Origin: Bdellovibrio reynosensis
Lineage (GTDB): Bacteria > Bdellovibrionota > Bdellovibrionia > Bdellovibrionales > Bdellovibrionaceae
Reading direction: 5' to 3'
NCBI RefSeq assembly: GCF_022814725.1
Contig: NZ_CP093442.1
Location: 1,178,001 to 1,242,000, forward strand
Length of the DNA stretch: 64,000 nt
A program made the position numbers and the translations under genes. The number at the start of each line of letters is the position of its first letter. Position 1 is the first letter of the stretch. Below the pieces are notes generated by a model. The model did not search any database. It had not been told where the DNA came from and saw only the letters and a program-made list of their open reading frames with translations. Positions 46,878 through 47,278 of the stretch are shown one piece after another.

Positions 46878-46953
46878 GTTCCCATCGTCTAGGGGCCTAG
46901 GACACCTCCCTTTCACGGAGGATACAGGGGTTCAAATCCCCTTGGGAACGCCA
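46878..46953 (+). tRNA. tRNA-Glu (UUC)
   Basis: The 76-nt cloverleaf has acceptor GTTCCCA/TGGGAAC, anticodon arm CCTCC-CTTTCAC-GGAGG with TTC, T arm GGGG-TTCAAAT-CCCC and an encoded CCA. It probably shares the promoter of tRNA-Lys, 62 nt upstream. A copy of its 3' end lies 234 nt downstream. Confidence 0.97.
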
Positions 46954-46966
46954 ATTTATATTAAAA

Positions 46967-46999
46967 ATAAAAAACCCAATCCAACGGATTGGGTTTTTT
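46967..46999 (+). terminator. Terminator of the tRNA transcript
   Basis: AAACCCAATCC pairs with GGATTGGGTTT around an AAC loop, with T-rich sequence on the right and A-rich on the left. It ends the tRNA-Lys/tRNA-Glu unit and could also act on the minus strand. Confidence 0.85.
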
Positions 47000-47005
47000 A
47001 TTTTT

Positions 47006-47278
47006 ACGATAGTTCACGTACCCCAAGGGGAAGTGGACTTAAAAGCGTTGGGCGAACAAGCCCGTCAAAATCTCCAAAAAATTTTCGTCGCCCAACAACA
47101 GGGGTTCACTCGACGACGCAGGATGCGTCCTCGAGGGCGCCGTAGGCAGTCGCTACGCGACCGAGGGCCACGACGGCCCGAGCCCCATCCCCTTGGGAAC
47201 GCCAGCGAAGTTTCAAGCAAAGCTTGAAACCAGCACAAAGCGAGTCGTGAGCAAAGCGAACGAAGAGCCTGTAAGAAC
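47006..47278. repeat. Hairpin-rich non-coding segment with a split tRNA-Glu 3' end
   Basis: This 273-nt region has no credible gene. It contains several hairpins: GTTGGGCGA with TCGCCCAAC, AGGATGCGTCCT, GTCGC-TAC-GCGAC, GGGCC-ACGAC-GGCCC and GTTTCAAGC-AAA-GCTTGAAAC. ACAGGGGTTCA (47098-47108) and ATCCCCTTGGGAACGCCA (47187-47204) repeat the T arm and acceptor end of the tRNA-Glu gene, here separated by 78 nt instead of 1. It looks like a remnant of a mobile or recombined tRNA 3' end. Confidence 0.65.

What the first reader, a model, noticed from the sequence alone, without database searches (positions are those of the whole stretch)
47098..47204. Split copy of the tRNA-Glu 3' end downstream of the real gene
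ACAGGGGTTCA and ATCCCCTTGGGAACGCCA, the T arm and acceptor end of the tRNA-Glu at 46878-46953, recur at 47098-47108 and 47187-47204. In between there are 78 nt of hairpin-rich sequence instead of 1 nt. tRNA 3' ends are usual integration sites, so this may be the scar of an excised element or an insertion inside an att copy.
Basis: partly seen in the sequence, partly recalled or inferred. Interest (0 to 1): 0.55.

Follow-up and report, generated by a model that had tools for sequence, protein, structure and literature searches.

The report
rtT-like repeat unit beside tRNA-Glu
Just after a tRNA gene sits a second copy of the tRNA's tail with a cluster of small hairpins wedged into it; the same kind of unit, usually carrying the tail of its own neighbouring tRNA, turns up beside many different tRNA genes in predatory bacteria and looks like the old, unexplained rtT repeats of E. 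coli.

Summary
It is not the scar of an island. It is one copy of a 251-bp non-coding unit: 18-nt tRNA 3' end (T-loop to CCA), terminator palindrome, inverted T-arm copy, T-arm 5' strand, a four-hairpin cluster inserted after TTC of the T-loop, then the 18-nt tRNA 3' end again. Covariance models find it in 16 of 24 congeneric genomes and 32 of 368 phylum genomes, beside tRNA-Glu, Pro, Leu, Met, Ser, Gln, Gly, Arg and tmRNA, sometimes in tandem. Where an intact tRNA adjoins, the copy matches that tRNA best in 12 of 22 genus/family copies and 11 of 12 outside. The hairpins covary strongly (344 double-change cells against 100 shuffled) with almost no G-T pairs, which favours folding as DNA. Two close genomes differ by exactly one 202-bp unit at tRNA-Pro. 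E. coli's tyrT repeats (rtT, RF00391) have the same layout, and the models rank them first at that locus, but RF00391 does not recognise the Bdellovibrio units. Best reading: a widespread class of non-autonomous, tRNA-anchored repeat units, gained and lost whole. The agent and any function are not shown.

The parts
46878..46953 (+). tRNA-Glu(ttc), the host gene of the unit; its last 18 nt (46936-46953) are the left end repeat
   Evidence: ARAGORN and Rfam
46936..47186 (+). the 251-bp unit: from the first base of the 18-nt tRNA 3' end to the last base before its second copy
   Evidence: distance between the two 18-nt repeats; unit ends seen exactly in the G018/G001 tRNA-Pro pair
46957..47011 (+). 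terminator-like palindrome with extended A/T arms, part of the unit
   Evidence: inverted repeat, 26-nt arms, 92% complementary; the corresponding palindrome is inside the G018 unit absent from G001
47021..47040 (-). A': inverted copy of the T arm and part of the acceptor stem
   Evidence: inverted repeats I2 and I3; counterparts in relatives
47047..47096 (+). P2 hairpin (GTTGGGCGA / TCGCCCAAC) with variable loop
   Evidence: predicted fold; GTCGGCG/CGCCGAC counterpart in tRNA-Glu units of relatives
47098..47108 (+). T5': copy of the T-arm 5' strand up to the T-loop
   Evidence: exact match to tRNA-Glu
47101..47186 (+). P3-closed hairpin cluster: P3 47101-47107 with 47180-47186, Pa 47109-47135, Pb 47138-47148, Pc 47149-47161, Pd 47165-47179
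   Evidence: covariance model match 47099-47193, 97.1 bits; covariation; coordinates
47187..47204 (+). second copy of tRNA positions 59-76 including CCA, right end repeat
   Evidence: exact 18-nt repeat

Best explanation
The feature is one copy of an rtT-type unit: a non-coding repeat unit of about 180-250 bp anchored to the 3' end of a tRNA or tmRNA gene. It behaves as a DNA-level, non-autonomous element whose home site is the tRNA itself. Both its ends meet the same 18 nt (T-loop to CCA), so a unit can enter or leave while the tRNA stays intact, and units can stack in tandem. The T arm inside it is interrupted at the T-loop by hairpins that would fold when the DNA is single-stranded or extruded, bringing T5' next to T3', while A' can pair with T3'. 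Shown: the layout, the covariation, the tRNA specificity, tandem copies, one exact presence/absence pair, the phylum-wide spread. Inferred: folding as DNA, and that recombination (site-specific or homologous) between the tRNA-end repeats moves or removes whole units. Unknown: the recombinase, how the local T arm is copied, and any benefit to the host.
For: Precise 202-bp presence/absence at tRNA-Pro between G018 and G001; 18-nt end repeats; tandem units; own-tRNA match best in 12 of 22 genus/family copies and 11 of 12 outside; strong covariation; G-T pairs 9 of 696 standard pairs against 48 of 696 in this genome's tRNAs, Fisher p 9e-8, and G-T:A-C of 14:8 against 48:0, p 3e-5; all examined copies on the strand of the tRNA; no ORF larger than 67 aa confined to the unit on the + strand and no protein feature; same layout in E. 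coli tyrT repeats.
Against: Only one clean empty/occupied pair, and deletion between 18-nt repeats would give the same picture. No recombinase is tied to the units. A unit hopping between tRNAs would need to acquire the new T arm, and no step seen explains that. Units at tmRNA and tRNA-Glu look inherited by descent in many species, so mobility may be low. 10 of 22 genus/family copies fail the own-tRNA test, most with an eroded T3'. The tRNA stem control counts only pairs drawn by ARAGORN.
Confidence: 0.62

Rival explanations
1. A functional small RNA: the unit is transcribed (by read-through of the tRNA terminator or otherwise) and A' with T3' forms an acceptor/T-stem-like helix ending in CCA, a tRNA mimic that affects tRNA processing or translation, as proposed for the E. 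coli rtT RNA.
For: Conserved covarying structure; copies follow their own tRNA, even in another genus; a passage of PMC2965389 says the E. coli rtT transcript could have a role in the stringent response.
Against: G-T pairs are rare and about as frequent as A-C in the hairpins, unlike tRNAs; T3' with CCA has eroded in many copies; no sigma-70-like promoter found (a simple scan); the HD100 unit is not among the 8 attack-phase sRNAs of PMC3627812 Table 2 (which says nothing of growth-phase RNA).
Confidence: 0.25
2. Remnant of integration and excision of ordinary tRNA-targeting islands or prophages, with a hairpin repeat inserted in the attachment copy by accident.
For: tRNA 3' ends are standard integration sites; islands displace the tRNA in several of these very loci; about 20 kb separates tRNA-Pro from its unit in this genome.
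Against: Same hairpin fold beside nine kinds of tRNA/tmRNA gene across the phylum; no integrase in the unit; no phage or plasmid match for the window unit; island joints differ.
Confidence: 0.08
3. Product of a REP/RAYT system (Y1 transposases acting on single-stranded palindromes).
For: Y1_Tnp genes occur in 21 of 24 genus genomes; the hairpins look DNA-like.
Against: G017 and G008 carry units but no Y1_Tnp match, while G015, G014, G003, G011, G020, G004 and G019 have Y1_Tnp and no R1 match. G008, G003 and G014 are fragmented assemblies. The unit ends are long tRNA repeats, not a short Y1 target.
Confidence: 0.03

Closest known systems
RtT RNA / rtT repeats of the E. coli tyrT operon (Rfam RF00391)
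   Same: Order of parts: tRNA 3' end, spacer with inverted T arm, T5' copy, hairpin cluster with C-GAA-G and GCA triloops closed by TTC/GAG, tRNA 3' end again; tandem copies. Model R3, built without it, ranks the four copies first at that locus (16.9-10.7 bits, rough E 0.0012-0.041; next E 1.1).
   Different: RF00391 does not hit the window or any of the Bdellovibrionota units given to it (7 loci at E up to 5; 3 at gathering). In E. coli the repeats follow tRNA-Tyr and no terminator palindrome precedes them at tyrV (by eye); here many tRNAs are used and a terminator lies inside the unit.
Tyrosine-integrase attachment sites in tRNA T-loops and the islands that use them
   Same: End repeat runs from the T-loop to CCA, the tRNA is kept intact, sites occupied or empty.
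   Different: No integrase, 180-250 bp only, and the core is interrupted by conserved hairpins.
REP/BIME palindromic repeats
   Same: Short non-coding palindromic DNA repeats; a passage of PMC2965389 places rtT-like elements upstream of gatY, rbfA, cvpA among BIMEs.
   Different: MG1655 stretches with those three genes gave no RtT and no R3 hit; the gatY and rbfA stretches gave naRNA4. The units here are tied to tRNA 3' ends.
Integron attC sites
   Same: Works-like only: a recombination core that would be rebuilt by folding single-stranded DNA.
   Different: No integron integrase, attC boxes or cassettes were looked for or seen; resemblance recalled, not tested.

Membership tests
RtT (RF00391) | match to the family covariance model | tested here: not met
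   no RF00391 hit in the window, in 7 unit loci at E up to 5, or in L050, L236, L244, L255 at gathering; E. coli and Klebsiella loci do match
RtT (RF00391) | layout: second tRNA 3' end with hairpins between T5' and T3', behind the tRNA | tested here: met
RtT (RF00391) | released as an RNA from the tRNA transcript | not testable with these tools
   no expression data held; HD100 unit not in the attack-phase sRNA table
Integrative element / genomic island in a tRNA | occupied and empty sites with exact ends | tested here: met
   one pair, G018/G001 tRNA-Pro; deletion between repeats not excluded
Integrative element / genomic island in a tRNA | own or associated integrase | tested here: not met
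   no ORF list entry in the unit suggests one (window unit; sizes of 202-251 bp leave no room); a helper elsewhere was not sought
REP/RAYT system | Y1 transposase present where repeats are | tested here: not met
   G017 and G008 have units and no Y1_Tnp match
Integron attC | IntI and attC core boxes | not tested
   -

The most novel reading that the evidence does not exclude
A bacterial class of gene-less mobile DNA units that use tRNA T-loops as home sites through an attachment core interrupted by hairpins and rebuilt by folding of single-stranded DNA, each re-copying the tail of the tRNA it joins; E. coli rtT would be its one previously described case.
Probability: 0.28. Interest if true: 0.85.

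Novelty: new variant of a known kind. Interest (0 to 1): 0.6.

Why it matters
The rtT repeats behind E. coli tyrT have looked like a curiosity of a single tRNA operon (recalled). Finding units of the same layout beside nine kinds of tRNA/tmRNA gene in a phylum of predatory bacteria, and in an unrelated gammaproteobacterial MAG, each usually fitted to its own tRNA, turns the curiosity into a class whose origin, movement and role can be tested in tractable laboratory strains (E. coli K-12, B. bacteriovorus HD100). It also warns that such copies can be mistaken for island scars.

Tried and rejected
Chance match: rejected. Known Rfam family: none at the window; in 7 relatives' loci only tRNA, tmRNA and sub-threshold matches. 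Phage or plasmid origin: no match for the window unit in phages or plasmids; viral contigs gave 0 and then 15 pattern hits that the model did not support. The genome contigs pattern gave 12 stretches; one was a clear copy (Bdellovibrio sp. UBA4095, a contig of the same length as G017's C13) and the other eleven looked like chance at those places. L014, an early BLAST match in G054, reads by eye as RNase PH coding sequence and is unrelated. Y1/RAYT as driver: not supported. Own-tRNA scoring was first done with a faulty split at TTC (own best in 10 of 22) and redone with fixed tRNA positions (12 of 22); L039 and L045, which carry an extra insert, and copies without a tRNA within 400 nt were left out of the count (in one search L039 and L045 could not be scored). 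L040 is in the count, although its tRNA lacks the 3' end. One of the 31 genus matches (G007:C1:1395505, E 0.0012) was not fetched. An integron attC, a retroviral-type tRNA primer site, IS110 bridge RNA and H/ACA-like guides were considered and set aside because no defining feature of them could be tested or seen.

Papers: the searches listed no paper describing such units in Bdellovibrionota; the library lacks most subscription journals. PMC3627812: passages and section 16 read. PMC7657543, PMC8250186, PMC2965389: passages only. PMC1762012 and PMC4383910: search listing with start of abstract only. The classical tyrT repeat papers (Rossi and Landy 1979; Michelsen 1989; Boesl and Kersten 1991), the d(GCGAAGC) mini-hairpin, attC folding and the length of the HD100 genome are recalled.

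Full report
Observation. The two pieces of the tRNA-Glu 3' end recur exactly as described. Between them lie 78 nt. The right piece is tRNA positions 59-76 including CCA, and the left piece ends in the T-loop. In a scan of 33 tRNA/tmRNA genes of this genome, split own-T-arm copies scoring 17-18 of 18 occur only behind Glu, tmRNA and Leu(tag), against 2 of 1056 mismatched pairs.

Family. Blastn found the hairpin stretch at 3 places in this genome, and 12 genomes of the 59 searched (this one included) had a match. A covariance model of 13 copies finds it in 16 of 24 genus genomes with 31 matches at E <= 0.01, 4 of them in this genome. It was found in 18 of 66 family genomes at E <= 0.001. With a broader model, 32 of 368 phylum genomes match at E <= 1e-4. 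Of 32 genus/family copies examined, 24 lie 71-332 nt downstream of an intact tRNA or tmRNA on the same strand, one at 1375 nt, and 7 behind what reads as a displaced tRNA 3' fragment, one of these not assigned to a tRNA. Of 20 stretches fetched for hits outside the genus, 11 show an intact tRNA upstream (Gln, Gly, Pro, Arg, Ser, Glu); for 3 of the other 9 fewer than 120 nt upstream were available. Model R3 was also run on 10 unrelated genomes as a control. One, a gammaproteobacterial MAG, gave E 4.1e-6, and that hit is again behind a tRNA-Ser whose T arm it carries, in two successive units. A second (E 0.086) has no tRNA nearby, and eight had none.

tRNA specificity. With positions fixed from the tRNA 3' end, the copy fits its own tRNA better than every tRNA of another isotype in 12 of 22 genus/family copies and in 11 of 12 outside the genus, the MAG included. 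In another genus the tmRNA T arm differs and the copy follows it. Many copies that fail the test have lost T3' beyond a few bases.

Structure. Four hairpins sit inside a closing stem made of the T-arm GGTTC and the element's GAGCC. Across 51 distinct copies 92.0% of cells pair, 27 of 31 pairs show changes on both sides, and 344 cells do, against 100.4 in shuffles; slid structures fall to 33-45% paired. That alignment was fitted to the model, so these counts lean towards the structure; the first one came from MAFFT and shows the same. G-T pairs are 1.3% of standard pairs in the inner helices against 6.9% in 32 tRNAs of this genome, and A-C is about as common as G-T. Many of the small hairpins have a GAA-type triloop closed by C-G, a form recalled as unusually stable in DNA. 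Together these favour selection on DNA folding, or on folding of both strands, over one RNA strand. This is inference.

Gain and loss. G018 and G001 are nearly identical around tRNA-Pro(tgg), but G018 holds one extra unit, a gap of 202 bp in the alignment, beginning and ending at the 18-nt tRNA end (the script printed 201 because it counted from one base later). Both have a second, older unit downstream. At tRNA-Ser G018, G006 and G002 have units, and G001 lacks the inside of its unit. Tandem or repeated units are seen in other families. In the genus, the tRNA-Glu loci that have the T-arm copies also have a hairpin insert, and the others have neither (read by eye), so the T-arm copies belong to the unit.

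Known relatives. The E. coli MG1655 tyrT locus has four RtT matches around two tRNA-Tyr genes. Read by eye they have the same order of parts: inverted GGGGAAGGAT, T5' copy AAGGTTCGA, hairpins, then AATCCTTCCCCCACCACCA. Models built only from Bdellovibrionota put these copies at the top of that locus (three of the top three with R2; four of the top four with R3), though with low scores; three Klebsiella copies score alike. The reverse test fails: RF00391 does not see the Bdellovibrionota units. RtT occurs in 4680 of 5426 E. coli genomes with 1-9 places per genome. I therefore call the window feature a variant of the rtT kind by layout, not a member of RF00391.

Mechanism. Most likely these are tRNA-anchored, gene-less DNA units that come and go through their tRNA-end repeats (0.62), with an RNA role as the main rival (0.25). 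The agent is unknown. Y1 transposases do not track the units. Ordinary islands use the same tRNAs with joints of their own. HD100 carries the unit behind tRNA-Glu: G006 is taken to be HD100 from its length (recalled) and from the c-di-GMP-I riboswitch that lies inside the published merRNA coordinates. Its attack-phase sRNA table does not list the unit.

Noticed in passing
window 47205-47270: A second palindrome-rich stretch (GTTTCAAGCAAAGCTTGAAAC, then GCGAGTCGTGAGCAAAGCGAACGAAGAGCC) follows the unit; similar GCGAG...AAGCGAAGCGAG...AAGCC repeats follow units in several congeners (L004, L005, L007, L016, L042, L045, L047), by eye a second, REP-like family.
   Followed up: partly
L175 647-719 (G023:C1:2404346-2404418): The only tRNA-Glu found in this single-contig genome lacks the 3' acceptor strand and the terminator; the break lies inside the tRNA/inverted-copy palindrome. 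Either an assembly collapse at the hairpin or a striking real deletion.
   Followed up: partly
window 47033-47059: 27 nt of the unit match, at 93%, a stretch of G054 that reads by eye as RNase PH coding sequence (E 3.6e-4 for one of 59 genomes); probably chance.
   Followed up: partly
L100 / L128 (G000:C1:1707419-1727332): About 20 kb separate tRNA-Pro(tgg) from its displaced 3' fragment and unit in this genome, an island not examined further.
   Followed up: no
L115 (G000 tRNA-Gln): Downstream of tRNA-Gln lies a large terminator palindrome, a 15-of-16 inverted T-arm copy and a different hairpin cluster, perhaps a divergent unit that the models miss; G018 has a run of N at the same place.
   Followed up: partly
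L039 and L045: In G001 and G016 the tRNA-Glu unit holds an additional hairpin insert of about 65-70 nt right after ACAGGGGTT, before the usual cluster.
   Followed up: no
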